From contig NZ_LAVA02000021.1 of the NCBI RefSeq assembly GCF_000974985.2, positions 1 through 64,000 on the forward strand: 64,000 nt of DNA. The letters run 5' to 3'. The position numbers were made by a program, and so were the translations under genes. Numbering within the stretch: the stretch's first letter is position 1; each line of letters starts with the position of its first letter. Under the pieces are notes generated by a model. The model searched no databases. It was not told the origin of the DNA and saw nothing but the letters and a program-made list of their open reading frames with translations. Below are positions 4,042 to 20,371 of the stretch, piece by piece. The stretch is from Streptomyces mangrovisoli. GTDB taxonomy: Bacteria; Actinomycetota; Actinomycetes; Streptomycetales; Streptomycetaceae.

Positions 4042-4431
4042 TCACGCACGCTCGGCGAGGTCCGTGACGACCGCCTCGACGACCGTCCGCCAGGCGCCTA
4101 CTTGGGCGTGGCTCGGGCCGAGTTCGTCGTGGTGGTACTTGCAGCTCGTGCTGAGTCCGCTCCACAGGGAGTTGACTCGGTGGGCCAGGTCGGGGCCGGC
4201 ATAGTGGCGCAGGCAGAGCAGTTTCGCTCGCATGGTGACCTGGCGGAGCCCGGCCGCCTCGGCGGCGAGGGCCGCGTCCACGGCCGCTTCGAGGGCGATG
4301 CGCAGGGCGTAGGCCGCGCCACGGGCCTGGCCGGCCGGCGTCAGCGGGCCGCCCAGGTCCGCCACGAGGAGGCTGTCGGCGGTCGCGAGGAGCGCGGCGA
4401 CGGTGTCGGCGCTCGTGCGGATGGCGCGCAT
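4042..4431 (-). CDS. Small all-helical protein, partner of the adjacent AAA ATPase
   Basis: A 129-residue protein with no recognised domain. The sequence is Ala/Leu-rich and predicted almost entirely helical, ending in a polar segment (CKYHHDELGP) and a final amphipathic helix. It has no signal peptide or membrane segment. Its ATG overlaps the stop of the upstream ATPase gene by one base (TGATG), so the two are almost certainly translationally coupled and work together. The order of a large SMC-like ATPase followed by a small helical protein resembles several phage-defence pairs, but no specific family could be assigned. That the gene is real is likely; its function is unknown. Confidence 0.75.
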   Translation of the reverse strand: MRAIRTSADTVAALLATADSLLVADLGGPLTPAGQARGAAYALRIALEAAVDAALAAEAAGLRQVTMRAKLLCLRHYAGPDLAHRVNSLWSGLSTSCKYHHDELGPSHAQVGAWRTVVEAVVTDLAERA

Positions 4432-6860
4432 CAGGCGTTCACCCCCGGCTTGCGGATCCGGTCGGCGAGGTCCTCCACCTTCCTGACGAAGGCGACCGGG
4501 TCGTGCGGGAGGAAGCCGTCGGGGTGGGCGCCGCGCTGACACTGGTTGATCAGGGCCGTGCTCTCGCCTCCGTACAGGGTGCGCAGACGGCTCCTGACCT
4601 CGTCGTCGGGGTGGACGAGACCGTCGTCGAAGAGGGCGAAGGAGGCGAGTGGGATGAGCCGTTCGGTCTCGTCGATGGCGGCCTGCAGGCGGTCGGCGGG
4701 CTGCCCGGTGCGGCTCCGACGAATCCAGGCCGCCTCGACGATCGCCATGGTCAGGGCCTCGCGGCACAGGGACGGCAGGACGTTGCGCAGTGCCGTGTCG
4801 GGGCAGCCGGTGGTGTGGGCGAGGGCCATGGCATCGTCGATGGCCTCCTTGACCGGGTCCGTCTCGGAGGTGACGTGCACGTTGGACCGCTCGCCGCGCT
4901 CCACCTTCAGTACGGTCACGGGCAGGCCCTGGCTGCGGAAGGCGTGCGGAAGTCGGGTGTCGTGGGTGAAGACGACGACCTGCCGCTCGCGGCCGAGTTC
5001 GTCGAGCACCTGGGCCAGGCCGTCGACCTTCGCCGGGTCCATGGACTGCACGGGGTCGTCGATGACGACGAAGCCGAACGGGCTGTCGGCCGTGGCCGCG
5101 CGGGGCAGGAACAGGGAGAGGGCGAGCGAGTGCAGTTCGCCCTGGCTCATGACGCCGAGCGCCGGGGCCTCGGTGTCGTCGACGGCCACATCCATGATCA
5201 GCTTGCGCACGTTGGCCCGCTCGCTGCCATGCAGACTGACGGGCTTCAGGTCGACGCTGCTCTGACGGCGGAGCTTCTCCCAGATCCGCTGCGTGTGGTC
5301 GGAGAAGGCGTTGACACGGTCGTCCCGGACCTCCGTCGTCACCTTCTTGACCCAGGTGAGGGCGGCGCCGACCTCCGTCCTGCGCGGCCTGGCGGCCTCG
5401 GCCTCGCGGAACAGCTTCGTCCACTCGGCCAGCAGGTCGACGACCCCACGCCAGCGTTCGTCCTTGGCCGCGAGTTCCTCACGCGCCTTCCTGGCCACGA
5501 CCTCGCACGCATCCGCCAGGGTCACCGCGGCCCCGAGCGCGCGCTCGGCGAGTTCGGCGGGGTCGGTGATCCGCCGGCAGTCGCCCCAGGTCTGCCACGG
5601 GGCGGTCAGCACGGCCGGCACCTCCCGCGGCATGAGGACCATGTCGTGCAGGGTCCGCGTCGCCTTACGCAGGCCGGCCTCGGCCTCGCGCACCGCCTCG
5701 GCCTCGTGGTGGAGCGCGGCGATCTGCACCTCGGCGCGCGAGGCCCACTCCCGGTCGAGGACCTGTTCCGTGCCACAGACCGGACAGGCCGTGTCGTCGG
5801 CGTGGCGGTCGCTGTGGCTCAGGGCCGCCTGGAGCAGCTGGGCCCTGCTGTGGGCGTCGGCGGCCGCGGTGCCCTTCAGGTCGTCGACGTCGGCGAGGGC
5901 GTTCCGCAGCGCGTCGACGGCGACGCCGACCTGCTGGAGGTCGGGCCCCTCCGCGGCGGCCTCCAGCCGTGCCTCCCGCAGCCGGCCCTCGTCGGCCGTG
6001 GGCACACCGGCGATCAGGGCGTCGAGGACGACGTGGTCGGGTCCGCCCTTCTCGTCCATCGCGACGAGGGCCTTGAGCGCCCGGTCGTCGTGCTCCACAT
6101 CCTCCAGTGCCGCGTGCAGAAGCGGCTTCTTCTCCTTCTCCGCGTTCACGACGGCGTCGAGTTCCTTCTTCGCGGCCGTCAACCGCCGCACGGCGGCGTT
6201 GAGATGGTCGAGTCCGAGGATCGCGGCGATGTTGTCGTACATCTCGGACGGCTTGCCGTTGATCAGGTTGCCCAGGTCGACGTACGACAGGAACGGCCGG
6301 TACGCCCGCGTCGCCTGCTCCCAGCCGACCTGTTCCAGCGGGACGGTGCCGTGTCCCGGCCGTCTGAGCAGTGCCTGGGAGTCGGTGAACGCCTCGCCCG
6401 TCCAGGTGCGGGTGAGGGTGCTCGGCGAGGGGTCGCCCTCGACGGTCAACTTGGCCTCGACGGTGGTCTGTTCACCCTGGTGCAGGTTGCGCCAGCGCAC
6501 GGCGCGGTTCGGGTGCTGACCGGCGCAGTGGGCGTTGGTGCCGGTGAACAGGGTTTCGACGGCCTCGGCGATGCTCGACTTGCCGGAGCCGTTGCGTCCG
6601 ACGACGAGGGTGACTCCCGGCTTCGGCCGCAGGTTCAGCCGCGCCTGCGAACCGACGCCGCGGAAGCCGCGGACCGTGACCTTTCCCAGGTAGACGGGAC
6701 CGGCGACGGCGTGGGACTCGCCCCCGTCCTGGGAGTCGCCGAGCGCCTCGCGGATACGGTTCCTCACCCCCTCGGTGAGCTTGGGGTCCTGGGCCAACCG
6801 CGCCTCGACGAGCTGGGGCAGCGGCAGCGCGTTGCTGCCATGTGCGTGCGTCGCGTCCAT
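4431..6860 (-). CDS. Rad50/RecF-like AAA ATPase with short zinc hook
   Basis: An 809-residue ABC/SMC-type ATPase. After a leader of about 55 residues, the RecF-like strand VTVRGFRGVG leads into the Walker A motif GRNGSGKSS (residues 88-96). Coiled-coil arms surround a CPVCG zinc-hook-like motif near residues 358-362. The signature region (SQGELHSLALSLFL) and Walker B FVVIDDPVQSMD (about 590-605) follow, so the ATPase looks intact. About 180 residues after Walker B form an unassigned helical domain containing CREAL and CQRGAH motifs. The arms are much shorter than in Rad50. RloC-type anticodon nucleases and Lamassu-type SMC proteins share this architecture, so a nucleic-acid sensing or defence role is plausible. 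It is coupled to the small gene downstream and preceded by a palindrome at 6938. Confidence 0.85.
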   Translation of the reverse strand: MDATHAHGSNALPLPQLVEARLAQDPKLTEGVRNRIREALGDSQDGGESHAVAGPVYLGKVTVRGFRGVGSQARLNLRPKPGVTLVVGRNGSGKSSIAEAVETLFTGTNAHCAGQHPNRAVRWRNLHQGEQTTVEAKLTVEGDPSPSTLTRTWTGEAFTDSQALLRRPGHGTVPLEQVGWEQATRAYRPFLSYVDLGNLINGKPSEMYDNIAAILGLDHLNAAVRRLTAAKKELDAVVNAEKEKKPLLHAALEDVEHDDRALKALVAMDEKGGPDHVVLDALIAGVPTADEGRLREARLEAAAEGPDLQQVGVAVDALRNALADVDDLKGTAAADAHSRAQLLQAALSHSDRHADDTACPVCGTEQVLDREWASRAEVQIAALHHEAEAVREAEAGLRKATRTLHDMVLMPREVPAVLTAPWQTWGDCRRITDPAELAERALGAAVTLADACEVVARKAREELAAKDERWRGVVDLLAEWTKLFREAEAARPRRTEVGAALTWVKKVTTEVRDDRVNAFSDHTQRIWEKLRRQSSVDLKPVSLHGSERANVRKLIMDVAVDDTEAPALGVMSQGELHSLALSLFLPRAATADSPFGFVVIDDPVQSMDPAKVDGLAQVLDELGRERQVVVFTHDTRLPHAFRSQGLPVTVLKVERGERSNVHVTSETDPVKEAIDDAMALAHTTGCPDTALRNVLPSLCREALTMAIVEAAWIRRSRTGQPADRLQAAIDETERLIPLASFALFDDGLVHPDDEVRSRLRTLYGGESTALINQCQRGAHPDGFLPHDPVAFVRKVEDLADRIRKPGVNA

Positions 6861-6937
6861 CTGGTGCCTCCTGTGGCTTCCGTGTCGACGTACGGGAACC
6901 GTAGGAGTGGGGTGGTCACGTGCGGTTGCGAAGACGC

Positions 6938-6953
6938 GATAACCCTGGTTATC
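6938..6953. promoter_or_regulatory. Palindrome GATAACC-CT-GGTTATC upstream of the AAA ATPase
   Basis: A perfect inverted repeat with 7-bp arms and a 2-bp spacer, 78-93 bp upstream of the ATPase start and just touching the stop codon of the preceding minus-strand gene. It is AT-rich compared with its surroundings. It matches the GATAA-N6-TTATC palindrome at 18194 upstream of the type I R-M operon, so it is probably an operator or promoter element. Confidence 0.5.
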
Positions 6954-7506
6954 AAGGAAGTTGATTCGCTGAACTCAATTCGCTGAAGGGCTCGTACTCG
7001 GCCCACACCGTCTTTCCCGGTCCGTCCGGGCGTGGGTGCCAGCCCCAGCGGGTCGCGAGGTGCGATACGAGGACCAGCCCGCGGCCTGCCTCCTCCTCCC
7101 CGGCGGCGCCGCCGGGGAGGGCCGGGCCTCGGGGGCGGCGGGGCTGGCGTTCGGCGCGGGTGTCGGTGACCTCCACGCGCACGGTACGGCCGTCCGGTGC
7201 GGTGTGCAGGCGCAGGCGGAAGTCCCGGCCGGGGACGTGTCCGTGCCGCACGGCGTTCGCGGTGAGCTCGGCGACGATCAGCACGATCGAGTCGTGCGCG
7301 TCGGTGCCGTAGGGCATGCCCCACGCGTTCAGCCGGACCGCCGCCAGGCGACGCGCGAGGCGGGCCCCGCGGGGCGTGGACGTGAAGCACATCTCGAAGT
7401 CGCCCTCGACGAGCGGTGATTCAGCGGCAGTGCGCCGGGGGGCGGAGGGGCCGGTGGTGCGAACAGTGCCCGTGCGGGTCATGGGTTCGGTGGGTTTCGC
7501 CGTCAT
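6952..7506 (-). CDS. ATP-binding anti-sigma-like regulatory protein (HATPase_c)
   Basis: A 184-residue histidine-kinase-like ATPase of the RsbW/SpoIIAB type, numerous in Streptomyces. It has the N-box IVLIVAELTANAVRHGH, a short acidic stretch (VEVTDTRAE), and the degenerate glycine-rich lid AGRGLVLVSHLATRWGW. These proteins bind ATP and normally act as protein-interaction switches rather than kinases. The ATG at 7506 was chosen. An ATG at 7482 is also possible, and longer in-frame extensions cross the divergent promoter and are unlikely. It is divergent from the DUF5753-DUF397 pair, the usual genomic partnership for this family (whiJ/abaA-like sets). Its partners cannot be deduced from the sequence alone. 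Confidence 0.85.
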   Translation of the reverse strand: MTAKPTEPMTRTGTVRTTGPSAPRRTAAESPLVEGDFEMCFTSTPRGARLARRLAAVRLNAWGMPYGTDAHDSIVLIVAELTANAVRHGHVPGRDFRLRLHTAPDGRTVRVEVTDTRAERQPRRPRGPALPGGAAGEEEAGRGLVLVSHLATRWGWHPRPDGPGKTVWAEYEPFSELSSANQLP

Positions 7507-8884: not shown

Positions 8885-9679
8885 TCACCGGGTTCCAAGC
8901 GAGATTTCGAACAACGTGGGATGTTCGTCCACTACACCCAGCGGGTGAGGGCTGTTTTTATACTTCTCAGAAAGCGCCACTTCATAGACCTTGTAAGCCG
9001 GTCCTGCCTCCCTGCCAGCAGCATCTATGGCCGCAAGCGTCTCGAGGGCCCCCATGACATTCCCGTTCTCGGCGCTGACCTCAAGCTCAGGACACAGTTC
9101 TTCGATGATGTACTCGCAAAGTTCCATGAGGTGCCGCCCTGCGCGGTTCGCCCGGTCTCGGATAGCCTCCGCTCGCGCGTCTTGGAGAGCATCCTCAAGG
9201 TCAGCCTCTTCACCTTCTTCGCACCAGATTCGTCGTAGGGACGCCTCCCTCTCGTTGAATCCCTTCTCGGAGTCACGCAGTAGAACTTCCAGGGTGAGAG
9301 TAGGGTGCGCCAACTCCTCGGCAGGCAACTCCGGCAACTGCTCAATCACTCCCAGGTCCGGGAGCATCCCACCGTCTCTGAGCGCTTGAAGCATGAGGGC
9401 CTGACGAAGAACAGGTAGCAGGCTGTCGCCATCAGTGGCTCCGCGGAGCTCGTATGTGGAGCGCTGGACGGCCTCGAAGTCGCAGTCCGCGATGTATCCA
9501 TCCAGCTCGAACCTGATCTCAGAAACAGTGGAACAGACTTGCCGGATTTCGTCGAGCAGTTCCTCGAACGCTTCTGAGAGGCGGTCCGCGATCTGCTGAG
9601 CCTCATCTGCCTCCCTGACTTGATGCTCAAGCTTCGCAACAAGGTCCATGAGTTCACTCAAGAATCCCCCTAGGGTCAA
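8885..9679 (-). CDS. Orphan helical/coiled-coil protein of unknown function
   Basis: A 264-residue acidic protein that I do not recognise. The first 60 residues are a predicted coiled coil (LVAKLEHQVREADEAQQIADRLSEAFEELL), and most of the rest is predicted helical. There is no signal peptide or membrane segment. A TTG start at 9679 has AAGGA about seven bases upstream. An ATG at 9649 is the alternative. The base composition is visibly less GC-rich than the flanking genes and codon use is less biased, which suggests recent transfer. It lies directly downstream of hsdR on the same strand, with a 95-bp gap, so it may be an accessory gene of the R-M locus. Confidence 0.7.
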   Translation of the reverse strand: MTLGGFLSELMDLVAKLEHQVREADEAQQIADRLSEAFEELLDEIRQVCSTVSEIRFELDGYIADCDFEAVQRSTYELRGATDGDSLLPVLRQALMLQALRDGGMLPDLGVIEQLPELPAEELAHPTLTLEVLLRDSEKGFNEREASLRRIWCEEGEEADLEDALQDARAEAIRDRANRAGRHLMELCEYIIEELCPELEVSAENGNVMGALETLAAIDAAGREAGPAYKVYEVALSEKYKNSPHPLGVVDEHPTLFEISLGTR

Positions 9680-9774: not shown

Positions 9775-12700
9775 TCAACCGTCCGACATACCGTTCATGG
9801 ACCACTCGTTGGCGAAGTGTTCCATCTGGCGGAGGACCAGGTCGATAGCTTCCTTCTGCTGGTCCGGCGGGTACTTGTTGCGGGCCAGGAGCCGCTTGAT
9901 CGTGCTGCGCAGGCGGGCTCGGACGGACTCGCGGGCGATCCAGTCGGGCTTGAGCTGGCGGCGGACCTCGGCGACCAGCTCTCGGGCGATGCCGGCCAGG
10001 ACCTCGTCGCCCATGAGCGAGCGGGCGGTGCCGTGGTCGGCGACGGCGTCGTAGAAGGCCAGCTCGCGCCAGTTCAGCGGCGGCTCGAACTTCTCGCCGC
10101 GGCGGGCGTCGGCGGCGACCTCCTTCGCCATCTCCACAAGTTTGGCGATGAGTTCGGCGCTGGTGTACTGCTGGCGCATGTAACGCACCATCAGGTCTTG
10201 GAGGCGCTCGGAGAACGTGGTCTGCCGGACGATGTTGTGCCGGGTGACCTCGCGCATCTTCCGCTCGACGAGCCGCCGCAGCGCTTCGGCCGCCAGGTGC
10301 GGGGTGTCGCTCTGCTGGAGCTGGGCGACGAGCGCGTCACTGAGATGCGTCAGGTCGGCGGTCTCAAGTCCCGCCTCGGCGAACAGGTCCGTCACGCCGC
10401 CGGTCTCCACGACCGACGATGTCAACTGGGACAGGTACAGCTCGACGTCCCGGGCCACCGGCAGCCCGCGTGCCTCGCGGTTCATGGCGTCCAGCTTGGC
10501 CATGTAGGCGCGGACCTCGACGAAGAACTGGATGTGCCGCTTCCAGGCGGGCCGGTCGGCGAACCGGTCCCCGACATCCTTTGAGCTGCCGGCCAGCGCC
10601 CAGAAGCGCTCCAGGCGGTAGGCGTGGTCACGGAAACGGCGACCCAGGGTCTCGCGGGGGTCGTCGAGCTGGTCGGGGTTGTTGCCGGGTGAGAGCGGGT
10701 CGAGCAGGTAGTTCGCCGTGCGCAGGGCCGCGTCGACGAAGGCCCTGGGGCCCGGCTTGTCGAGCAACGGCTCCCAGGCGAAGCCGCGCAGGATGCCGGT
10801 GAGTACGTCGTACTCGTTGCGCAGTTCGTCCAGGGCGCGCTCGACGTCCTGGCCGAGGGTGCGGTCCTGCTGGTCGGCGTCGGTGTACTCGGCGATGGCC
10901 CGCTGGAGGTTCTCCGTGAGCGGGGCGTAGCCGACGAGGAGGCCGTCCTCCTTACCGCGGAACCGCCGGTTGACGCGGGCGAGAGCCTGCATCAGGTTGG
11001 CGCCCTTGAGCGGCCGGTCCAGGTACATGGTGTGGATCGGCGGCGCGTCGAAGCCGGTCAGCAGCATGTTGTTGACGATGAGCAGCTCCAGCTCGTCGTC
11101 GGGGTTCTTGGCCCGGTTGATGACCGTCTTGCGCACGCTGTCACGCAGGGCGTGGGCCAGCAGCGCCGGTGAGTCCTTGCGCGAGTCCGACGAGAAGACG
11201 ATCTTCATGACGCCGGTGTCGGGCTGGTCGCTGTGCCACTCGGGCCGCAGCTCGCGCAGGGCGTCGTAGACGCGGACGCAGATCTCGCGGGTCGCGCACA
11301 CCACCATGGCCTTGCCGGGCGCCCCGCCGGCCTCGGAAGCACCGACGAACGGCTTCATCCGCTCGCGCCGGGCCTCCCAGTGCTCCACGAGGTCGGCGGC
11401 CAGGTCCCTTATCCGGGCCGGGGCGCCGTACATGGCGTTCATCGTCGCGACGGCCTGCTCGACGCGGCGGCGTTCGGTGTCGTCGAGGCCGTCGGTGATG
11501 CGGTCGGCCTCCTCGTCGATGGTGGTCGGGTCGATGTCACGGTCCAGGACGAGCTGGATGACGCGGCTCTCGTGATAGACCTTCACGGTCGCGCCGTCGT
11601 CGGCGGCCCGCTTGAGGTCGTAGACGTCGATGTAGTCGCCGAACACCTCGCGGGTGTTGCGGTCAGCCTCCGAGATCGGCGTTCCGGTGAAGGCGAGCAG
11701 CGTGGCGTGCGGCAGCGCGTCGCGCAGGTGGCGGGCGAGACCGTTCAGGTCGTCGTAGTGGCTGCGGTGGGCCTCGTCGACGATCACGACGATGTTCCGC
11801 CGGTCGGAGAGCATCGGGTGGTCGACGCCCGACTCCCGCTCCTCCTTCGTCTTGCCGAACTTCTGGAGCGTGGTGAAGAGGATCCCTCCCGTCCTCTTCG
11901 CCGCCAGCTCCTCACGGAGTTCGGCGCGGGTGACGACCTGCTTCGGCGTCTCCGGGAGGATCTCGCTCTCCTGGAACGTCGTGTAGAGCTGGTCGTCGAG
12001 ATCGGTGCGATCGGTGACGACCACGACCGTGGGGTTCAGGAGAGCCGGGTCCCTCATCACCAGGGTGGTGGTGAGGACCATCTCCTCCGACTTGCCGGAA
12101 CCCTGGGTGTGCCAGACGACGCCGGCCTTACCGTCGCTGGCAGAGGCCGTGCGAACGGCTTCGGCGGCACGCGTGACCGCGTGGTACTGGTGCGGCTTCG
12201 CGATGCGCTTCATCCGCTTCGACGGCACGAAGTTGATGAAGGAGTGGACCAGTTGGAGGAAACGGGACTGGGTGAACAGGCCGTGGACGGCCAGGTTCTG
12301 CCCCGACTCCGCGAACCCGTCCGCCGTCAGCGGGTCGACGCGGGCGCCGAACTCGTCCGTGTTCCAAGGGGCGAAGTGCTCGTACGGGGTGAAGGGTGTG
12401 CCGTACTTGGCCGTGATGCCGTCGGAGAGAAGGACGATCGCGTTGTAGCGGAACGCGGTCGGGAACTCCTCCACGTACCGCGCCACTTGGGCGTGGGCCG
12501 TCTGGAGTGTGGCGTCCTCGTCGCCGGCCCGCTTCAGCTCGATGACGGCGAGGGGCAGGCCGTTGACGTACAGGACGACGTCGAAGCGGCGGTTCTTCTC
12601 GCCGTCGATGACGGTGACCTGGTTCAAGGCGCGGTACGTGTTCGACTCGGGGTCGGCCAGGTCGAGGAGGCGGATGGTGGGGTTGTGCTCGGCGCCGAAG

Positions 12701-13053
12701 TTGTCGGTGTAGGTGACCGAACGTATGCCGGAGGTGAGGAAGCGGCTCGCGGTCCGGTTCTCCTCATAGGTGTCCTGCGAGCCGGGGGTCACGGCAGCCG
12801 CCACGGCGTCCCGTACGGCGTCCGGGGGCAGCTCGGGGTTCAGCCGCTCGATCGCCTCGTGGAGGTCTGGGTAGAGGATCAGGTCGTCCCAGGACTTCCG
12901 GTGCCCGGACCCGGGCGCGAACTCGTTCCCGCCGGCCGGCAGCCAGGCCAACTCGGCGAGTTCGTCCAGCGCGAGGATCTCCCAGTCTGCCTCGGTGGGG
13001 CGGCGGTTGGCTCTGTCGTCGTCGTGCGTGTTCCCGTCGTGGGATGTGGTCAC
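9775..13053 (-). CDS. hsdR: Type I restriction enzyme, HsdR subunit
   Basis: A 1092-residue motor and nuclease subunit of a type I restriction-modification complex. The N-terminal HSDR_N PD-(D/E)xK nuclease is visible as FDVVLYVNGLPLAVIELK (about residues 140-160). The superfamily 2 translocase has Walker A TQGSGKSEEM, the DEAH box IVDEAHRSHYDDL and a motif III-like FTGTP. The long helical C-terminal part docks on the M-S core. The length is typical. It cuts DNA lacking the methylation set by HsdM/HsdS after ATP-driven translocation. The ATG overlaps the hsdS stop by 4 bp, so it is the last of four tightly linked genes. No disabling change is seen. Confidence 0.96.
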   Translation of the reverse strand: MTTSHDGNTHDDDRANRRPTEADWEILALDELAELAWLPAGGNEFAPGSGHRKSWDDLILYPDLHEAIERLNPELPPDAVRDAVAAAVTPGSQDTYEENRTASRFLTSGIRSVTYTDNFGAEHNPTIRLLDLADPESNTYRALNQVTVIDGEKNRRFDVVLYVNGLPLAVIELKRAGDEDATLQTAHAQVARYVEEFPTAFRYNAIVLLSDGITAKYGTPFTPYEHFAPWNTDEFGARVDPLTADGFAESGQNLAVHGLFTQSRFLQLVHSFINFVPSKRMKRIAKPHQYHAVTRAAEAVRTASASDGKAGVVWHTQGSGKSEEMVLTTTLVMRDPALLNPTVVVVTDRTDLDDQLYTTFQESEILPETPKQVVTRAELREELAAKRTGGILFTTLQKFGKTKEERESGVDHPMLSDRRNIVVIVDEAHRSHYDDLNGLARHLRDALPHATLLAFTGTPISEADRNTREVFGDYIDVYDLKRAADDGATVKVYHESRVIQLVLDRDIDPTTIDEEADRITDGLDDTERRRVEQAVATMNAMYGAPARIRDLAADLVEHWEARRERMKPFVGASEAGGAPGKAMVVCATREICVRVYDALRELRPEWHSDQPDTGVMKIVFSSDSRKDSPALLAHALRDSVRKTVINRAKNPDDELELLIVNNMLLTGFDAPPIHTMYLDRPLKGANLMQALARVNRRFRGKEDGLLVGYAPLTENLQRAIAEYTDADQQDRTLGQDVERALDELRNEYDVLTGILRGFAWEPLLDKPGPRAFVDAALRTANYLLDPLSPGNNPDQLDDPRETLGRRFRDHAYRLERFWALAGSSKDVGDRFADRPAWKRHIQFFVEVRAYMAKLDAMNREARGLPVARDVELYLSQLTSSVVETGGVTDLFAEAGLETADLTHLSDALVAQLQQSDTPHLAAEALRRLVERKMREVTRHNIVRQTTFSERLQDLMVRYMRQQYTSAELIAKLVEMAKEVAADARRGEKFEPPLNWRELAFYDAVADHGTARSLMGDEVLAGIARELVAEVRRQLKPDWIARESVRARLRSTIKRLLARNKYPPDQQKEAIDLVLRQMEHFANEWSMNGMSDG

Positions 13054-14225
13054 GTGGCATCCTCGACAATCTTCTCGGCGTCCTTGACACGGAGGCGACC
13101 GGACATGAGCTGAGGGAGGAGGGTGTCGCGGAGGGTGGCGAGGGCCCGGGACTCCTGCCGCGCCAGCATTGCCCTGCCGCAGAGGCTCCGGATCTGAGCC
13201 CCTGTTTCTCCGAACTGGCGGGGATCGACAACCTCAGTCGCCATCGCCTCTGCGGGCCGCACACGCTGGTGGCTCTTCGAGGTGCCAGTCACCTTGGATG
13301 CAAGGCTGTCCAAGAAGTTCCGCTGGCGCAGGACTGCCCACAATTCGTGCGATGCCAGTGGGCTATTCGGGGCCAGAACCAGGAACTCGGTCGATGCCAG
13401 AGAGGGAGCACGAGGATCTGGCTCAACGTGCCAGACTCGGGGGATTTCCGGATTCAGCTTTGACAGCAACACAACTGGTTCGCTGACGGAGAACTTCGCG
13501 CTCCGGATAGCCTCAGGAGAGACACGCTCCGGCATCTGCCCCACGTCAAAAGCAGGGAGACTGTAGTGGTCAACAGACTCCTCACTGATCTCGCGCGGGG
13601 AGACCTGCTCCTTTCGGAGAACACAGATTTCCTCGACGCGCACCCGCCGCTTCCAATGCCCTTGAGAGGCCAAGGCCAGCGCCAACTCTTCAGACCTGGC
13701 CGCGATGCGCTCGTTGACGGCAATCTTGTCATCCAGCGCCCCGAGCAACCCGCTTAGCGCCTCCTGGACAGAGAGAGGTGGCACGCTGAGCACAAGCTCC
13801 TTCGCCGACTTCACATTGAAGTGCTGTTGAACAGCCCCAACCGTGTGCGCCTTCACGAAGTCTTGCGCGGTCTCGTTAATCGCATAGCACAGGTAACGTG
13901 CGTCAACTTCCGGCCCCGGTGTAGCAATTACCAGGTCGGAGCAGTTCATCGGCCCCAAATCGTCGGGGATCACTGCCGTAGCACCAGGTTCACCGGTTCG
14001 AACGATTGCCAGATCGCCAGGCTTCAGCTGCGACTTTGCCAGCTCGGCATGAAACCCTTCGTCAATGTACTTCAACACGGAAAGATCGAGTCGGCCGCGT
14101 TTGACATTTAGCGAGCGCAGAAAAGGAATCCCACTTTCCGCGTAGCGGGATGCCATCGACCCCACATGCCCGACGGTAATACGAGTGCAGAGGTCACCGA
14201 GCCTTCGACGGTCCCACTCAGACAT
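13050..14225 (-). CDS. hsdS: Type I restriction-modification specificity subunit HsdS
   Basis: A 391-residue protein with two target-recognition domains separated by a helical spacer, which set the bipartite DNA site. TRD1 runs about residues 1-160, from [13 protein letters not shown]. The first conserved helical repeat follows [28 protein letters not shown]2 occupies about 190-340. A second helical repeat ([36 protein letters not shown]) closes the protein, a textbook hsdS ending. The start at 14225 (MSEWDRRRL) overlaps hsdM by 8 bp. The TRDs are less GC-rich than hsdM and hsdR, as expected for modules exchanged by recombination. The recognition sequence cannot be predicted by eye. Confidence 0.94.
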
Positions 14226-15840
14226 CGACCCTCCCCAACTGCTCGCGCACCGTCTTCTCAAGATCAGCCGACTTGTCGAACAACGCGAACAACTCCTCCG
14301 TCAACGCGCTGATCCGCTCAGCCACGGCCTCCGCGTCCTCTTCCTCAGCCTCCACGGCCCCCACGTACCGCCCCGGCGTAAGCACATACCCGTGCTCCCG
14401 CACCGTCTCCAGATCGGCCGAGTAGCAGAAGCCCGGCTCGTCCTCGTACGTCAGGCCGGCCTCGCGGGCCGAAGGCGTGCCCCGCCAGGCGTGATAGGCG
14501 TCGGCGATCTTCTTGACGTCGGCCTCGGCGAAGACGCGCTCCGTCCTGTCCGCCATCTCGCCCAGCCCCCGGGCGTCGATGAACAGGATCTCGCCCCGCC
14601 GGTCATCCAACCGCCGTGCCCCCTGCGGGGACTTGTCGCGGGACAGGAACCACAAACACGCCGGGATCTGCGTCGTACGGAACAACTGTGACGGCAGCGC
14701 CACCATGCACGCCACCAGGTCGGCCTCCACCAGCGCCGCGCGGATCTCGCCCTCGCCGCTCGACTGCGAGCTCATCGAGCCGTTGGCCAGGACGATGCCC
14801 GCCGTGCCCCGCTCCCCCAGCTTCGAGATCATGTGCTGGAGCCACGCGTAGTTGGCGTTGTTTCGCGGCGGAACCCCGTACTTCCAGCGCGGGTCCGACT
14901 CGTCCCTCGCCCAGTCCTTGATGTTGAAGGGCGGGTTGGCCATGACGAAGTCGGCCTTGAGGTCCGCGTGCTTGTCGTCGGCGAAGGTGTCGCCCCAGCG
15001 GGCGGCGAGGTTGCCGTCGATGCCGTGGATGGCCAGGTTCATCTTGCCCAGGCGCCACGTGCGCTCGTTCAACTCCTGGCCGTAGACGGAGATGTCGGCC
15101 TTGTGGCCGCGCCCCCGGTGAGCCTCGATGAACTTGGCCGCCTGCACGAACATGCCGCCCGAGCCGCACGCCGGGTCGTACACCCGGCCCTCGTACGGCT
15201 CCAGGATCTCGACGATCAGCCGGACGACGGAACTCGGCGTGTAGAACTCCCCGCCCCGCTTGCCCTCTGCCCGCGCGAAGTTGCCGAGGAAGTACTCGTA
15301 CACCTCGCCGAGCAGGTCCTGCGCCGGCCGTTCCTCGTTGCCGCCGAAGCGGGCGTCGCTGATGAGGTCGACGAGTTCGCCGAGGCGCTTCTGGTCGACG
15401 CGGTCCTGGTTGAAGATCTTCGGGAGGACACCGGTGAGGGCGGCGTTCTCCCGCATGATGGCGTCCATCGCCTCGTCCAGGAGCTTGCCGACGCCCTGCG
15501 CCTTGGCGTTGGCGGCGATCCAGGACCAGCGGGCGGTCTCCGGGACCCAGAAGACGTGGGCGCCCGTGTACTCGTCGCGGTCCTCCAGGAAGTCGCCGAT
15601 CTGGTCCTCGGAAATGCCGTCCTCGCCAAGCTCCTTGGCCAGCTCCTGCCTCCGCTCCTCGAAGGCGTCCGAGACGTACTTGAGGAAGATGAGACCGAGC
15701 ACGAACTCCTTGTACTGCGCGGCGTCGATGGAGCCGCGCAGCTTATCGGCTGCCTTCCAGAGGATGTCCTGGATCTCCTTGGCGGTGGACGCTGTGAACA
15801 GCTCCGCCTGGTCGGCGGGCTTCTTCTGGCGTGGAGGCAT
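14218..15840 (-). CDS. hsdM: Type I DNA N6-adenine methyltransferase HsdM
   Basis: A 540-residue modification subunit. An N-terminal helical domain (HsdM_N) precedes the methylase core. The core shows [18 protein letters not shown]-binding motif [13 protein letters not shown] and catalytic motif IV ANPPFNI, all intact. The C-terminal helix region would contact HsdS. It methylates adenine in the host site and, with HsdS alone, forms the methyltransferase. The gene begins 33 bp after the degenerate methylase-like gene and overlaps hsdS, so one transcript is likely. Confidence 0.96.
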
Positions 15841-15873
15841 CGGGTGGACCGTCTCCTTCAGTGGGCGTCGATG

Positions 15874-18066
15874 TCAGTCGGTGACGATGTCAGTCGTGGT
15901 GTGCGGGAGTTGCTGGATGGTGAGCGTGCCGTCGGCCATGCCGGCCGCCACCACGCGAGTCAAGTCGTCGAGTGCGGCGCTCTGCTCGCGCAACAGCTCC
16001 GCCCTGCCCTCGATCTCGGCCAGTACGGCCTCGTAGAGGTCGGCCTCGGCGCGGCTGAGGTCGGGGACGACGAGGTCCTCGATCCGCCGGGACGCGCGGA
16101 CGGCACCGCTGGTGCGGGCGTGCTCGGCGGCGGCAGCACGCAGTAACGAGGCCAGCACCCGGGGCCGTACGGGCGGATCTGCGTCCGGGTGCACCCGCAG
16201 GATGCGGGCCGGGGCCGCGACCAGGGAGACGCCCTCGGTGTCGACGTACACACCGAAGTGCGGGCTGGCGGTGACGACGAGGTCGCCGGGCAAGGTGAAC
16301 TGGGCGTGCTCGTAGGCGGTGAGGAGGATGCCACGGTCGATCCGGTGGTCGCCGACCCGGGCGTGGCCCAGGATCTCGTCAGGCGTGAGGACCGGGTAAT
16401 GGCCAACGGCGGTGAGGTGCTCGGGGGCGAAGCGGTGGCCGGGACGGCGGCGCAGGCGTCGGGTGCGTAGCAGGCGGCCGACGGACGTACGGCGCACCGG
16501 CTGGTTCTCGGGGCGCAGCTCCGCCTGTGCGTGCAACCGGAGTTCGCCGGTACGCGAACGCTCCTGGAGCTCGCTCAGGCGGCGCTCCAGGTCGGAGATC
16601 AACGCCGGGCGCTCGACTACCGTCCGGGTGTGGCGGGACGCGAGCGTGCGGTGCTGAGGCGTGAACGCGGCGCCGGGGCGGCCGTCGAGGTCGGCACCGC
16701 GGACGATGGCGGCGTGGCGCGGTTCGTGGCGTGGGTCGGGGGTCCAGCCGGAGGTGCGCCAGATGGCGATGTCCTCGGCGAGGGTGTCGAGGACGGGCTC
16801 GGTCAGCGGCTGGGCGGAGTAGTCGGCGAGCAGGACGAGACCGGTGCGCTTGTCCTCCGGGACGCGGGCGAGCAGCCAGACCGCCGTACGGTAGCCGGGG
16901 CGGAAGGCGTACGCGCCGTCGGGCAGGCTGATCGCGGCTTTCAGAAGGCCCGGTTCGAGGAAGGAGCGGCGCAGGCGGTCCGCGGCACCGTGCCGGGCGA
17001 GCGGGCCGGTCAGGACGTCGGCGGGGCCGAGGACGACCGCGACGGAGCCGGTGTCCAGGTAGTCGGTGAGGGCGGCGACCCGGTCCAGGACCGCCTTGGG
17101 GTCGCGGGTCTCGGCGGCCTCGTAGGGGAGAGCGCAGACGAGCAGGTCCGGGTCGCCCCATTCATCGGCGGACAGTTCCTCGCCGGGGACGACGTCGAGC
17201 CGGAACTCGTACACCCCGCGCACCAGCATCCGGCGGCGTACGAGACGTACCCGGGCCGGGTCGGGGTCGGCGGCCAGGTAGGTGTGGCCGGAGTCCTCGT
17301 CGGCCTGGTCGTGCAGGGCGGCCAGGAAGTCGCCGGCGCGGGCGTACGGCACGGCGATGACCGATCCCTCGTGCAGGGTGTCGGCACCGGACAGGGCGGC
17401 GAGCGCGCGGACCACGGCCGGGGTGGGCTCGTCGGCGGTCAGATCGCGGGAGCCGAGACGGTGGCGGGCCTGGAGGATCCAGTCGAAGGCCTCGGCGGGG
17501 TTGTAGGCGGCGTCGATCAGTTCGTCGGCGAGTTCGGCGAGAGCTGGGCCGGTGTGCCCGGGGTCGGGCAGGGCACGCAGCTCGGCGAGGAGGAAACGGT
17601 CCTCGGGGTCGAGGTCGGCGGCGTCGTCCAGGAGGCGGTCCCAGGGGCGGCCGTCGGCGACGGGCGCGTCCAGCTGCTGGTGCAGGCAGACCAGCGAAGT
17701 CAGGGCATTGACCAGGACGGGCGCGGGCAGCGACGGGGTGCGCCAGGCAGCCAGGGTGTGCAGGGCCAGCTCGGCACGGAGCCGGCGGGAGTCGGTGTTG
17801 CCGCGGCCGGTCGAGGCAAGCCACTCGACGACCGCACGGGCGTCGAACAGGGGACGTCCGTCTTCGTGGGAGACGGGTGCGGGAAAGTCGGGGTGGCGGC
17901 GGGCCCAGGTGGTGGGGACAGGGCGCTTGACCTGGGCGAGGGCGGCGATCTCGGCGTATGTCATCCGCCAGGCCGGGGTTTCGGGCACGATGGAGGGCGT
18001 CTCCGAGGGGGTCTCGGACGGCGTCCCGGTCGGCGCCTGAGCAGCCGCGTGCGTGGTCATGGGCAT
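15874..18066 (-). CDS. Degenerate N6-methylase/HsdS-like fusion protein leading the R-M operon
   Basis: A 730-residue protein that looks like an inactivated HsdM joined to an HsdS-like tail. A Pro/Thr-rich leader is followed by a DNA-binding module (MTYAEIAALAQVKRPVPTTW, then HPDFPAPV). The methylase-like core retains the LKAAISLPDGAYAFRPGYRTAVWLL region, which follows motif IV in real enzymes. The catalytic NPPY/F has become CALPY in DPDLLVCALPYEA, and no glycine-rich motif I is visible where expected. The C-terminal third resembles a target-recognition half: PGDLVVTASPHFGVYVDTEGVSLVAAPARI, then a helical repeat-like end. The ATG at 18066 follows an AGGGGGG ribosome site, and an ATG two codons later is possible. 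It is the first gene of a tight operon with hsdM, hsdS and hsdR. A regulatory or alternative-specificity role is possible. Confidence 0.82.
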   Translation of the reverse strand: MPMTTHAAAQAPTGTPSETPSETPSIVPETPAWRMTYAEIAALAQVKRPVPTTWARRHPDFPAPVSHEDGRPLFDARAVVEWLASTGRGNTDSRRLRAELALHTLAAWRTPSLPAPVLVNALTSLVCLHQQLDAPVADGRPWDRLLDDAADLDPEDRFLLAELRALPDPGHTGPALAELADELIDAAYNPAEAFDWILQARHRLGSRDLTADEPTPAVVRALAALSGADTLHEGSVIAVPYARAGDFLAALHDQADEDSGHTYLAADPDPARVRLVRRRMLVRGVYEFRLDVVPGEELSADEWGDPDLLVCALPYEAAETRDPKAVLDRVAALTDYLDTGSVAVVLGPADVLTGPLARHGAADRLRRSFLEPGLLKAAISLPDGAYAFRPGYRTAVWLLARVPEDKRTGLVLLADYSAQPLTEPVLDTLAEDIAIWRTSGWTPDPRHEPRHAAIVRGADLDGRPGAAFTPQHRTLASRHTRTVVERPALISDLERRLSELQERSRTGELRLHAQAELRPENQPVRRTSVGRLLRTRRLRRRPGHRFAPEHLTAVGHYPVLTPDEILGHARVGDHRIDRGILLTAYEHAQFTLPGDLVVTASPHFGVYVDTEGVSLVAAPARILRVHPDADPPVRPRVLASLLRAAAAEHARTSGAVRASRRIEDLVVPDLSRAEADLYEAVLAEIEGRAELLREQSAALDDLTRVVAAGMADGTLTIQQLPHTTTDIVTD

Positions 18067-18193
18067 GTCCCCCCTCTCCCCTTGAGCCCCGGGGCCGGCG
18101 TTCCCTCTCCCCGGCGCCTCGCGGTCCGCCCCTTTCGGTGGGGCAGCAGTCAGCAATCTACAACCAGTCGACCGGGTCACGGTTAACCCTCCC

Positions 18194-18209
18194 GATAATA
18201 GGGGTTATC
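18194..18209. promoter_or_regulatory. Palindrome GATAA-TAGGGG-TTATC upstream of the R-M operon
   Basis: A 16-bp element with 5-bp inverted arms and a 6-bp spacer lies 128-143 bp upstream of the degenerate methylase gene and 84 bp before the divergent gene at 18293. Its arms and spacing equal those of the element at 6938 before the AAA ATPase. A second short palindrome, GGTTAACC, lies just beside it at 18181. Confidence 0.5.
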
Positions 18210-18292
18210 AGTGCTTCTCCGATTCCATCACCGAGGCGGCTGACACCTTGAGATGACCAAGTGCCGCAACGCCTAACCGGAGGATCACTGCC

Positions 18293-18916
18293 ATGAGTCA
18301 CAAGCCCTCGACACCGCCGCCCGGCAACCCGTGGCCCTACGGCACGGGCGCCACATCGAGCTGGAGCGCGGTACCGCCGGTCACGCCGGACGGAGGCCTG
18401 CAATCCCCGGCAGCGCAGCCGGGGGCGCCGAAGCCGTCGCGTCGCAGAGCCTGGCTGACCCATGGCGTGACCGCGTTCGTCGCGCTCGTGGTCGGCGCTG
18501 CCATCGGCGGCAACGGGGACTCCGGCGGCAAGGACGACTCCGCCGCGCCCGCCCCGACCGTCACCGTCACCAGGACCGCGGGCGCAGCTGACGGCAAGCC
18601 GCAGCCGAAGGCCACGGTCACAGAGAAGGTCACCGTCAAGCCGAAGCCGACCAAGAAGCCCGGCCCGGCCACCACGGTCGAGGGTGAAGGTCAGTACCTC
18701 GTCGGGGAGGACATGCAGGCCGGCACGTACAAGACCGCGGGACCTGACGAAGACACCATCATCGAGAACTGCTACTGGGCACGCACCAAGGATGCCTCCG
18801 GAGAACTCGACGCGATCATCGCCAACGAGAACCTGCAGGGCCAAGGGCGCGTGACGGTCAACAAGGGCGAGTACTTCGAGACCAAGGGCTGCCAGAAGTG
18901 GACCAAGGTCGGCTGA
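18293..18916 (+). CDS. Membrane-anchored protein with extracytoplasmic small domain
   Basis: A 207-residue protein. The cytoplasmic part is Pro/Gly-rich (residues 1-50), followed by a basic stretch and one membrane helix (about 57-74, GVTAFVALVVGAAIGG). A Pro/Thr/Lys linker leads to a C-terminal domain from about residue 125. This domain contains YLVGEDMQAGTYKT, a Cys in ENCYWAR and a Cys in ETKGCQKW, probably a disulfide. The same domain occurs in many actinobacterial lipoproteins of unknown function. GGAGGATCACTGCC precedes the ATG. It is divergent from the R-M operon, with no clear functional link. Confidence 0.8.
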   Translation: MSHKPSTPPPGNPWPYGTGATSSWSAVPPVTPDGGLQSPAAQPGAPKPSRRRAWLTHGVTAFVALVVGAAIGGNGDSGGKDDSAAPAPTVTVTRTAGAADGKPQPKATVTEKVTVKPKPTKKPGPATTVEGEGQYLVGEDMQAGTYKTAGPDEDTIIENCYWARTKDASGELDAIIANENLQGQGRVTVNKGEYFETKGCQKWTKVG

Positions 18917-19284
18917 CCAGCCCGGCAAACGCCACCGCGCCAGTTGGGAAACGCAACAAACCCGGAGGCGGGCGGTCGCCGGACCGACCCGCCCGCCCCA
19001 CGTCGGCGGACCCGTACGGCATACGCCATAAGGATGTCCATCGCCTGAGCCGCCGGGATCGCATCCCCGTGGGCTAGGTTCTCTGTTCCAGCGCGTCCGG
19101 CATCCTGGCGGTCGGGCGCCATCACCCCATAAGTTCGTGGAGCCCCGCAGGCCGTAGGACTGGTCCTGCAACCACGCGGGACGCGCAACCGACCGCCATG
19201 GACGTCCCGCTCGGGGGCTGCACCGACCGGCGCACCGCCACGCGCCGCACATATCACCGACAACAGGAGACGGAAGGATCTGCG
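18917..19284. other. Intergenic region without recognised gene
   Basis: A 368-bp stretch between two plus-strand genes. The open frames on either strand are GC-driven shadows. No tRNA, repeat or hairpin of note was seen. Confidence 0.4.
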
Positions 19285-19962
19285 TTGACCGGACTGGAAA
19301 TCCCCGAGGTCTACTGGGACGCGGACGAGGCAGCCGGGCTGCTGGTCGAATACTTCACCCGCCTGCGCCAGGCCGGTGATCTCTTCTACTCCGGAGCCCA
19401 TTTCGAGCGGCTGGGTGGCGGCGGGGACGCCGAACACGTCGCGAACCGCTTCGACAGCAACGACCTGATCGCCCTCACCATGCTGCGCGTCTCGCTCAAG
19501 CCCCACGGCTCCATCGACTTGCTGGCCGATCCCGACCGTCGGTGGACTCGCCTGCTGTCACAGATTCCTCGCGACGCCCGCCTCGAAGATCCCTTGAACG
19601 ATCCGCTCGTCGCGAAGGGCGGTCCCGCGTGGGAGCTGTGGGAGCACCTGGCCGTCGCAGCGGACCACGACCGCAAGCCCGACGGCAGCGGCCCCGTGAT
19701 CGCGGGCAAGCTCCTGGCCCGCAAGCGACCTCACCTGATCCCGGTCTACGACAGGCGCATCAAGCAACTCTTCCGGCGCCCGACGACGGATCATTCGTTC
19801 TGGGCTGCGCTGGCTGCGGCACTGCGGGCGGACAACGGCGCGCTGCGCGATCAGTTGATCCGTCTCCGCCAGAAGGCCGGAATCGGGGAGGACATAGGGA
19901 TCCTGCGTGTCTTCGACGTCATCGCGTGGATGCACCAGGGACAGCTGGACCAGGCATCCTGA
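19285..19962 (+). CDS. Uncharacterised cytoplasmic protein (DUF6308-like)
   Basis: A 225-residue protein resembling the actinobacterial DUF6308 group, recalled by similarity of the LLARKRPHLIPVYDRRIK segment. A TTG start at 19285 was chosen because GGAAGGA lies just upstream and the protein then begins with the conserved-looking TGLEIPEVYWDADEAAGLL. An upstream ATG at 19198 has no ribosome site. There is no signal peptide or membrane segment. The product is mostly helical and Arg-rich in the second half. The function is unknown and the neighbours give no clue. Confidence 0.72.
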   Translation: MTGLEIPEVYWDADEAAGLLVEYFTRLRQAGDLFYSGAHFERLGGGGDAEHVANRFDSNDLIALTMLRVSLKPHGSIDLLADPDRRWTRLLSQIPRDARLEDPLNDPLVAKGGPAWELWEHLAVAADHDRKPDGSGPVIAGKLLARKRPHLIPVYDRRIKQLFRRPTTDHSFWAALAAALRADNGALRDQLIRLRQKAGIGEDIGILRVFDVIAWMHQGQLDQAS

Positions 19963-20056
19963 GCCGAAGGGGCATCCGGACCGGTGGCAGCCCCAGAAAC
20001 GAACGAGGACCACGACCGTCAGGTCGAGGCCCTCGCTTCGGTGTGACTACGAAGAG

Positions 20057-20141
20057 TGTCCGAGGGGGGACTTGAACCCCCACGCCCGATAAAGGGCACT
20101 AGCACCTCAAGCTAGCGCGTCTGCCATTCCGCCACCCGGAC
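20057..20141 (-). tRNA. tRNA-Leu, anticodon GAG
   Basis: A class II tRNA on the minus strand. The acceptor stem GTCCGGG pairs with CTCGGAC (one G-T pair), and the discriminator is A. The anticodon stem CTAGC/GCTAG encloses loop TTGAGGT, giving anticodon GAG. A long variable arm and a T-arm with GGTTCAAGTCC follow. CCA is not encoded, as is common in actinobacteria. No integrase or attachment-site duplication was seen nearby. Confidence 0.95.
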
Positions 20142-20371
20142 AAGGTGTCTGCCGCCCGACCGGGGGTGCTCCCCGCGGCGACAGGCACAACAATACCAAG
20201 GTTTCGGAGTGCGTTTCACCTGCATATCCGTCCAGGTGAGAGGGGTCGGGGCAGGAAGGAAGCGCAGGTGGGAGGGGTCGTCGCGCAGGGTGAGGGAAGG
20301 TGGACCGGGTGTCAGGAGTGGGACCTGAGTCGGGTGCGGGATCTGAGTCGGGTGCGGGACCCAGCGTCAGG
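20142..20371. repeat. Short 18-bp tandem repeat between tRNA-Leu and aldehyde dehydrogenase
   Basis: This 230-bp spacer has two 18-bp copies, differing at one base, at 20320-20337 and 20338-20355 (GGGACCTGAGTCGGGTGC type), and the start of a third. No gene is seen in the spacer. Confidence 0.6.

What the first reader, a model, noticed from the sequence alone, without database searches (positions are those of the whole stretch)
15874..18066. Catalytically dead methylase fused to a specificity-like half heads a complete type I R-M operon
The protein keeps the overall HsdM-then-HsdS order, but its NPP(Y/F) motif is CALPY and motif I is not visible. It is encoded immediately before hsdM, hsdS and hsdR. 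It might compete for or replace HsdS/HsdM in the complex, read DNA without methylating, or control expression.
Basis: partly seen in the sequence, partly recalled or inferred. Interest (0 to 1): 0.65.

Follow-up and report, generated by a model that had tools for sequence, protein, structure and literature searches.

The report
Dead methylase as restriction-operon regulator
In Streptomyces and related soil bacteria, a DNA-modifying enzyme that has lost its active site, and carries a DNA-binding domain at its front end, appears to have become the dedicated switch that controls a virus-defence operon and a partner ATPase gene.

Summary
ORF 15874-18066 (-) is an HsdM-fold protein with motif I lost, NPPY changed to CALPY, and a C-terminal half-HsdS, directly upstream of hsdM-hsdS-hsdR. 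In 36 of 37 loci (window plus 36 relatives, 12 genera) the otherwise unalignable upstream DNA carries the palindrome TGATAAC-N4-GTTATCA, nearly always 32-34 nt before a TANNNT box with no -35 hexamer between. The same unit recurs before a Rad50/SMC-like ATPase gene (window 4431-6860; 18 of the 20 loci where the ATPase was found). In a distant class (C) with another HTH, another palindrome again precedes both the HTH-methylase and the ATPase gene. The half-S is conserved (77-89%) where neighbouring HsdS target domains are scrambled (17-31%), so it is not a variable specificity subunit. Best reading: a catalytically dead HsdM-HsdS pseudoenzyme serving as autogenous transcription factor of a type I R-M operon plus an ATPase gene. 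Binding and sign are inferred (activation favoured). Regulatory methylases are known in type II systems; a dead, type I-like one with a two-promoter regulon is a new variant.

The parts
15874..18066 (-). gene X: HTH + dead HsdM-fold + half-HsdS protein, 730 aa
17791..17967 (-). N-terminal winged helix-turn-helix of X (residues 34-92)
   Evidence: AF2 secondary structure strand-helix-helix-strand-strand-helix; 8 of 48 family members match Pfam HTH_17 and 1 MerR_1 at E<=0.01, the window protein itself matches none; dN/dS 0.08-0.13, lowest of the six regions in 2 of 4 pairs and second lowest in the other 2
16642..17793 (-). HsdM-fold body of X (residues 92-475), catalytically degenerate
   Evidence: VIA-align Z 28.3 to 3lkd_B; motif table
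17314..17364 (-). lost motif I (SVIAVPYARAGDFLAAL, residues 235-251)
17122..17136 (-). degenerate motif IV CALPY (residues 311-315)
15907..16509 (-). half-HsdS: one TRD-like domain plus long helix (residues 520-720)
   Evidence: conserved, not hypervariable
18193..18210 (-). operator 1 TGATAACCCCTATTATCG (2 mismatches to TGATAACN4GTTATCA), upstream of X
18155..18160 (-). -10-like box TAGATT, 32 nt 3' of operator 1
14218..15840 (-). hsdM, 540 aa, motifs intact
   Evidence: Pfam N6_Mtase 2.8e-109, HsdM_N 1.2e-28
13050..14261 (-). hsdS (403 aa from TTG 14261; an ATG 12 codons later is an alternative start)
   Evidence: PADLOC Specificity_I 1.3e-44; Pfam Methylase_S 20.5 bits, just under its cut-off of 22
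9775..13053 (-). hsdR, 1092 aa
   Evidence: TIGR00348 1.5e-145, PADLOC REase_I 3.5e-232
6937..6954 (-). operator 2 TGATAACCAGGGTTATCG (1 mismatch), upstream of the ATPase gene
6898..6903 (-). -10-like box TACGGT, 33 nt 3' of operator 2
4431..6860 (-). Rad50/SMC-like ATPase gene, 809 aa, second member of the predicted regulon
   Evidence: Pfam SMC_N 7.6e-16; AF2 pLDDT 82.3 and Foldseek matches to Rad50, SMC heads, JetABC and Lamassu LmuACB; preceded by operator 2

Best explanation
Gene X is a transcription factor built from a type I-like methylase that lost catalysis. Its N-terminal winged HTH (possibly helped by the half-S domain) binds, probably as a homodimer, the palindrome TGATAAC-N4-GTTATCA. 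One copy lies in its own promoter and one in front of a separately transcribed gene for a Rad50/SMC-like ATPase, so X sets the expression of X-hsdM-hsdS-hsdR and of the ATPase together. Shown by comparative genomics: loss of both catalytic motifs in the window protein (motif IV in the whole clade), purifying selection on the dead body, close linkage to this hsdM lineage, a conserved palindrome at fixed spacing to a TANNNT box before both genes, and a different palindrome where the HTH lineage is different. Inferred: that X is the protein that binds it, that it binds as a dimer, and the sign. The lack of a -35 hexamer, with the operator centred about 41 nt 5' of the -10 box, favours activation (about 60:40 over repression).
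For: (1) Palindrome with <=2 of 14 mismatches upstream of X in 36 of 37 loci (window + L046-L081; exception L072 with 4) and with <=3 in 0 of 41 relatives outside the clade (L084-L124; the anchor of the fragment L124 is unreliable); 30 shuffles of each region give best matches averaging about 6 mismatches, never under 3. (2) TANNNT at 32 (22), 33 (13) or 34 (1) nt in 36 of 38 such promoters (truncated L082, L083 included, L072 left out); no position in between above 0.6 bit; TTGACA match 2.67 against 2.51 shuffled. (3) In 15 whole genomes chosen because they hold X, the 20 sites with <=1 mismatch lie next to X or the ATPase gene in 19 cases; in the window's 9.17 Mb genome 2 of 4 sites with <=2 mismatches are these two promoters. 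(4) ATPase homologue found in 20 of 37 loci (window + 19 of 36) within the fetched flanks; an operator with <=2 mismatches lies upstream of it, or in a divergent region shared with X, in 18 of 20, of which 16 have TANNNT at 32-33 nt. (5) Class C HTH-methylases (11 loci) have another palindrome, GTTGACGNCGTCAAC: 17 of 18 sites with <=2 mismatches lie before the HTH-methylase (9) or the ATPase gene (8), and all 11 methylase genes have a site at <=3 with a TACNGT box 33-35 nt on. Class B has a third element, one copy in each of 20 of 43 loci (L082-L124), always before X; in L177 that copy lies between divergent X and ATPase genes. (6) Three ATPase homologues without an HTH-methylase within the fetched 17-19 kb (L179-L181) have none of these elements. 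(7) hsdM orthologues in 150 Streptomyces genomes: 13, of which 12 adjacent to an X gene; the other has an in-frame stop. (8) X half-S 77-89% identical to the window's while HsdS TRDs are 17-31% in L046-L052. (9) dN/dS of X 0.18-0.26, dead body 0.20-0.35, HTH 0.08-0.13, four pairs. (10) A1 is one branch, SH-aLRT 100.
Against: No binding or expression data. The window protein itself has no Pfam HTH hit at E<=0.01. L052 has an ATPase without an operator, L072 a variant palindrome (4 mismatches), L068 no TANNNT at the fixed spacing; L073 and L078 have the ATPase-side site but no TANNNT there. In L077 a second site precedes an unrelated 574-aa ORF. In class B the ATPases of L093 and L178 have no class B element of their own. 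In class C the ATPase promoters of L183 and L184 show no site at <=3 mismatches. The ATPase was not found in 17 of 36 fetched loci, though the flanks end at 10 kb or less. The class B and C consensuses were derived from the loci in which they were counted; the reversed class C consensus finds 16 sites at <=3 mismatches in the same DNA. At <=2 mismatches the 15 genomes hold 56 A1-type sites (reversed pattern: 7), most of the 2-mismatch ones not near X or the ATPase gene, and one 1-mismatch site (G465:C220:173591) is near neither. In L054, L057, L071 and L081 one HsdS target domain is also conserved (TRD2 63-74%). About 640 residues of methylase-like body are kept, more than DNA binding needs, so a second role is likely.
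Confidence: 0.85

Rival explanations
1. X is a structural subunit of the R-M complex: a dead HsdM-halfS that replaces or competes with HsdM/HsdS and changes specificity or lowers methylation.
For: HsdM fold and half-S present; adjacent to this hsdM lineage in 12 of 13 genomes.
Against: Half-S is not hypervariable although HsdS is; HTH and operators at two separate promoters are unexplained; hsdM, hsdS and hsdR are all present beside it.
Confidence: 0.12
2. X controls the regulon and also senses something through its methylase/half-S body, for example a DNA-mimic anti-restriction protein or free HsdM/HsdS, so that the dead body is the ligand domain of the regulator (an extension of the best explanation, not exclusive of it).
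For: Body under purifying selection without catalysis; top Foldseek match 7eew is listed as an intact MTase solved with the DNA mimic Ocr, and aligns over model residues 97-723; the co-regulated ATPase resembles defence ATPases.
Against: No direct evidence; Ocr-bound structures recur among HsdM entries in the list (7bst, 2y7c), so the match is weak support; activator-like promoters would make sequestration shut the regulon off.
Confidence: 0.2
3. The palindrome belongs to another, unlinked regulator, and X is an accessory protein of unknown role.
For: No binding data; regulons of unlinked regulators also show conserved sites.
Against: Palindrome type follows the HTH lineage of X (A1, B, C) across genera, and near-perfect A1 sites are almost confined to X and the ATPase gene.
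Confidence: 0.07
4. X is a decaying pseudogene or a weakly active methylase.
For: Progressive loss of motifs from class B through A2 to A1; a few A1 members (e.g. L078, L079) still have DPAAGAG at motif I.
Against: dN/dS 0.18-0.26 overall; open frame kept in the A1 loci; N and first P of NPPY replaced in all 37 A1 loci.
Confidence: 0.03

Closest known systems
Regulatory DNA methyltransferases of type II systems (M.SsoII, M.Ecl18kI, M.EcoRII)
   Same: DNA-binding regulatory region at the N-terminus fused to a methylase, binding site at the operon's own promoters, autogenous control (PMC12707154 passages; PMC3978073, PMC3695355, PMC6100179 starts of abstracts in the listing).
   Different: M.SsoII and M.Ecl18kI are (cytosine-5) methylases of type II systems that keep their activity; X has an HsdM-type body with a half-S, catalytically dead, in a type I operon, with a second predicted promoter.
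Controller (C) proteins, including the one upstream of hsdM,S,R in Mycoplasma gallisepticum
   Same: Dedicated autogenous regulator encoded in the R-M operon (PMC12707154 passages; PMC5282649 seen in listing only).
   Different: C proteins are small stand-alone HTH proteins (size recalled), not methylase-derived.
RptR
   Same: First gene of type I R-M loci, represses the promoter of an island that also holds a second defence system, DarTG2 (PMC12255303 abstract and passages).
   Different: Small alpha-helical repressor, TAGCTA motifs overlapping the -10 box, conserved in Gammaproteobacteria; no methylase body.
Type I HsdM and related methylases (3lkd, 7vs4 PacII, 7eew)
   Same: Fold of residues 92-475, and half-S.
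   Different: Catalytic motifs lost; HTH added; half-S not variable.
SMC/Rad50-like ATPases of defence systems (LmuB of Lamassu, Mad3 of MADS, JetABC)
   Same: Fold and weak profile matches of the co-regulated ATPase.
   Different: Partner genes of those systems were not looked for; here the ATPase gene shares an operator with an R-M operon.

Membership tests
Active type I HsdM (N6_Mtase) | Pfam N6_Mtase above its gathering score | tested here: not met
   14.4 bits against 20.4
Active type I HsdM (N6_Mtase) | motif I (DPACGSG) and motif IV (NPPF/Y) | tested here: not met
   SVIAVPYARAGD and CALPY
Active type I HsdM (N6_Mtase) | HsdM fold | tested here: met
   VIA Z 28.3, rmsd 3.6, 358 aligned
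HsdS specificity subunit | two target-recognition domains, hypervariable between loci | tested here: not met
   one half only and conserved where HsdS varies
HsdS specificity subunit | sequence relation to HsdS | tested here: met
   profile hits 5ybb_D 2.8e-5, 3okg 3.2e-5 at positions 571-687
Regulatory methyltransferase (SsoII/Ecl18kI type) | N-terminal DNA-binding (HTH) region fused to methylase body | tested here: met
   (model; Pfam in 8 of 48 relatives)
Regulatory methyltransferase (SsoII/Ecl18kI type) | operator in its own promoter | tested here: met
   conserved palindrome, comparative only, binding not tested
Regulatory methyltransferase (SsoII/Ecl18kI type) | retained methylation activity | tested here: not met
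   catalytic motifs lost in sequence; no assay
Regulatory methyltransferase (SsoII/Ecl18kI type) | demonstrated autorepression | not testable with these tools
   needs reporter/EMSA
C protein | small stand-alone HTH protein | tested here: not met
   730 aa HTH-HsdM-halfS; the size of C proteins is recalled
RptR | small alpha-helical protein with TAGCTA motifs over the -10 box | tested here: not met
   size, fold and operator differ (RptR features)
Lamassu LmuB (for the ATPase) | LmuB profile and Lmu partner genes | tested here: inconclusive
   LmuB best PADLOC hit only 68.8 bits, tied with mad3; partner genes not searched for

The most novel reading that the evidence does not exclude
X is a molecular decoy: a dead copy of the HsdM-HsdS target surface, wired to an HTH, that phage anti-restriction proteins (DNA mimics of the Ocr/ArdA kind) bind when they attack the restriction enzyme. 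Loss of X from the two operators then changes expression of the SMC-like ATPase, which acts as a second line of defence guarding the R-M system.
Probability: 0.1. Interest if true: 0.88.

Novelty: new variant of a known kind. Interest (0 to 1): 0.64.

Why it matters
It shows a restriction-type methylase apparently turning, along a series of living relatives (intact, half-degenerate, dead), into a dedicated transcription factor whose operator is predicted to the base. It gives type I R-M systems of actinobacteria a testable regulator, links them to an SMC-like ATPase gene not contiguous with them, and offers a practical handle on restriction barriers in Streptomyces genetics.

Tried and rejected
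Alternative specificity subunit: rejected because the half-S is conserved while HsdS varies (but in L054, L057, L071 and L081 one HsdS domain is conserved too). Pseudogene: rejected by dN/dS and open frames. Residual methylase: N and first P of NPPY are replaced in all 37 A1 loci; motif I is lost in the window's subgroup but partly kept in some others, e.g. DPAAGAG in L078 and L079, so SAM binding cannot be excluded there. Chance palindrome: rejected by shuffles, relatives outside the clade and genome-wide counts. A -35 hexamer between palindrome and -10: no TTGACA enrichment. Single-sequence PDB search found nothing useful for X; the family profile did. NCBIfam found nothing for X; PADLOC only a 15-bit MTase_I hit. 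Four A2 relatives (L011-L014) and L084, L085 show no such palindrome; their upstream DNA aligns as if coding, so these X genes are probably not first in their operons (read by eye). Literature: searches for a regulator of this kind (open-licence PMC papers only) listed none that I recognised; apart from PMC12255303 (abstract, passages), PMC12707154 (passages) and PMC12839542 (passages) I saw listings only.

Rows dropped: the tree left out L082, L083, L088, L117 and L124; it was a quick search and the tool warned of long branches meeting. One search left out L072; L071 was taken there at its ATPase-side palindrome (its X-side site has TAGGAT at 31 nt), which is one of the two misses, L068 being the other. 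Alignment A3 holds 48 of the relatives in hand, not all. An earlier count gave the ATPase count as 18 of 36; one search lists 19 of 36 plus the window. In one search a helper step failed and HsdM/S/R were not searched; one search repeated it correctly. The search for hsdS, hsdR and X around the G003 hsdM used the window's proteins, so a very divergent hsdS could have been missed.
Full report
1. What is there. The ORF at 15874-18066 (-) encodes 730 aa. It is followed at once by hsdM, hsdS and hsdR, the last two overlapping their upstream neighbours. Pfam sees the methylase only below its cut-off, motif I is gone and NPPY reads CALPY. An AF2 model from a 48-member alignment (pLDDT 89.4, pTM 0.69) shows three parts: a winged HTH (about 34-92), an HsdM fold (92-475; VIA Z 28.3 to 3lkd, 27.9 to PacII 7vs4) and a half-HsdS (TRD plus long helix, about 520-711; HsdS profile hits at 571-687). 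The best Foldseek match by E-value is 7eew, listed as an intact MTase from Vibrio vulnificus solved with Ocr. HTH_17 is recognised in 8 of 48 members, not in the window protein.

2. The family. Relatives came from 150 genus genomes, 394 class genomes and named genomes (best 80 of a capped list). The close clade ('A1': window plus L046-L081, from Streptomyces, Kitasatospora, Actinacidiphila, Glycomyces, Microbispora, Planomonospora, Micromonospora, Winogradskya, Amycolatopsis, Nocardia, Lentzea and Frankia) has xLPY/xLPF (one IPY, one LPV) in place of NPPY. Motif I is lost in the window's subgroup and variously degraded elsewhere; some members (L078, L079: DPAAGAG) keep much of it. A1 is one branch, SH-aLRT 100, quick tree. 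All 36 named loci have hsdM next to X; 35 of 36 also have hsdS and hsdR (L053 ends at a contig end). Six sister 'A2' proteins keep LCAGxG or DPAAGxG and a D/S-PP-Y/F, also in front of hsdM. Deeper 'class B' proteins (L086-L123) mostly keep DPACGxG, and 26 of 38 have NPPY/F; 16 of these loci show hsdM- and hsdR-like genes downstream, in a divergent set. A 'class C' (about 570 aa, no half-S, 11 loci) keeps DPACGIG but has DPPV, DPPA or EPPA. In 150 Streptomyces genomes, hsdM orthologues (E<=1e-100) occur in 13; 12 are adjacent to an X gene (8 A1, 4 A2). The one without X (G003) carries an in-frame stop, and no match to the window's X, HsdS or HsdR was found around it.

3. The operator. Upstream of X the DNA is unalignable between genera except for TGATAAC-N4-GTTATCA. 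It is present with <=2 mismatches in 36 of 37 A1 loci and with <=3 in none of 41 loci outside the clade. In 36 of 38 promoters (two truncated A1 loci, L082 and L083, included; L072 left out) TANNNT follows at 32 (22), 33 (13) or 34 (1) nt; no position in between exceeds 0.6 bit, and TTGACA is not enriched. Among 15 whole genomes that hold X, 20 sites have <=1 mismatch; 19 lie by X or by the ATPase gene and one (G465:C220) by neither. At <=2 mismatches there are 56 sites (reversed pattern: 7), so the 2-mismatch class holds many unrelated palindromes; the window's X site is itself a 2-mismatch site.

4. The second promoter. The window's second site, 6937-6954, has the same architecture (N33-TACGGT) and precedes a Rad50/SMC-like ATPase gene, 4431-6860. 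The ATPase was found in 20 of 37 A1 loci within the fetched flanks, downstream or divergent. In 18 of 20 it has, or shares with X, an operator with <=2 mismatches, 16 of them with TANNNT at 32-33 nt; L052 has none and L072 a variant. Against: a second site in L077 precedes an unrelated ORF.

5. Operator follows the HTH. Class B (recognition helix mostly TRATVSNW) has TGAAAGCA-NN-GTCAA in 20 of 43 non-A1 loci, one copy each, always before X, 18 with TANNNT 25-27 nt on; in L177 the single copy lies between divergent X and ATPase genes, but the ATPase genes of L093 and L178 have no copy of their own. Class C (TRAAVSNW) has GTTGACGNCGTCAAC before the HTH-methylase gene (11 of 11 loci at <=3 mismatches) and before its ATPase homologue (8 of 11 at <=2, one more at 3, none in L183 and L184). 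17 of 18 sites with <=2 mismatches in those loci are in these two promoters, while the reversed consensus gives 16 sites at <=3. In L169, L174 (methylase) and L173, L176 (ATPase) the site falls inside the mechanically longest ORF; I place it upstream because those ORFs start earlier than their relatives do. ATPases without a nearby HTH-methylase (L179-L181) lack all three elements. These consensuses were taken from the same loci, so the counts at X are partly circular; the placement at the ATPase gene and the near absence elsewhere are the informative parts.

6. Not a specificity subunit. In L046-L052, HsdM and HsdR are 85-94% and 81-93% identical to the window's, X's half-S 77-89%, but HsdS TRD1 23-31% and TRD2 17-22%; in L054, L057, L071 and L081 TRD2 is 63-74%. 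The dead body is under purifying selection (dN/dS 0.20-0.35; HTH 0.08-0.13; four pairs).

7. Mechanism. X most likely binds the palindrome as a dimer and sets transcription of both units. Operators centred about 41 nt 5' of the -10 box at promoters without a -35 hexamer are the layout of activated promoters, so I favour activation, about 60:40; this is inference. In class C the ATPase site appears to lie nearer its promoter, over a TTGAC that could serve as -35 (read by eye), which would fit repression there. Why the methylase body is kept is open: dimerisation, extra DNA reading by the half-S, or ligand sensing.

8. Comparison. Regulatory methylases with an N-terminal HTH are known in type II systems (PMC12707154, passages; M.SsoII and M.Ecl18kI, starts of abstracts in the listing). 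C proteins and RptR regulate R-M operons, also type I. A dead HsdM-halfS as regulator, and a shared operator with an SMC-like ATPase, did not appear in my searches.

Noticed in passing
L093, L094, L098, L102, L108-L110, L114, L121, L122 (about 10000-19000): Class B: an HTH-methylase-TRD gene with intact motifs heads a divergent hsdM-hsdR set (hsdS detected in some), so the operon encodes two apparently intact methylases.
   Followed up: partly
L169-L176, L182-L184: Class C loci: HTH-methylase with DPACGIG and DPPV/DPPA/EPPA and the SMC-like ATPase 6-10 kb away; in L172 a UvrD-type (GajB-like) helicase and two further genes lie between. Possibly an undescribed defence system sharing the ATPase family.
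   Followed up: partly
L011-L014: In A2 operons the DNA just upstream of X looks coding, ending in a stretch like RNRIAHHE (HEPN-like by recall; read by eye).
   Followed up: no
L055-L060, about 17000-21300: A second, divergent hsdM/hsdS-like pair lies downstream of hsdR.
   Followed up: no
L082:10004-11400: Decayed locus: the first 112 codons of X lie shortly before the C-terminal part of the ATPase gene, as if the stretch between had been lost.
   Followed up: no
L077:8054: A perfect operator with TATCTT 33 nt on precedes a 574-aa ORF unrelated to the ATPase (RmuC-like by recall), a possible third kind of regulated gene.
   Followed up: no
window 8885-9679 (-): ORF of about 254-264 aa right after hsdR without any Pfam or PADLOC match at E<=0.01; may be cotranscribed.
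   Followed up: partly
window 7631-8805 (+): An ORF that looks like an XRE-type regulator, followed by a short DUF397-like ORF (both names by recall), lies between hsdR and the ATPase gene, so the two predicted X-controlled units are not contiguous.
   Followed up: no
window 20056-20141 (-): tRNA-Leu (gag) about 2 kb upstream of X, beside a DUF6308 gene (19198-19962); a possible island edge.
   Followed up: no
L061:9916: Operator with a symmetric change in both arms (TGATAGC-N4-GCTATCA) together with an altered recognition helix (ERAVPANW).
   Followed up: partly
L141 (G465:C220:173591): A 1-mismatch palindrome without a TANNNT box and without X or the ATPase nearby.
   Followed up: partly
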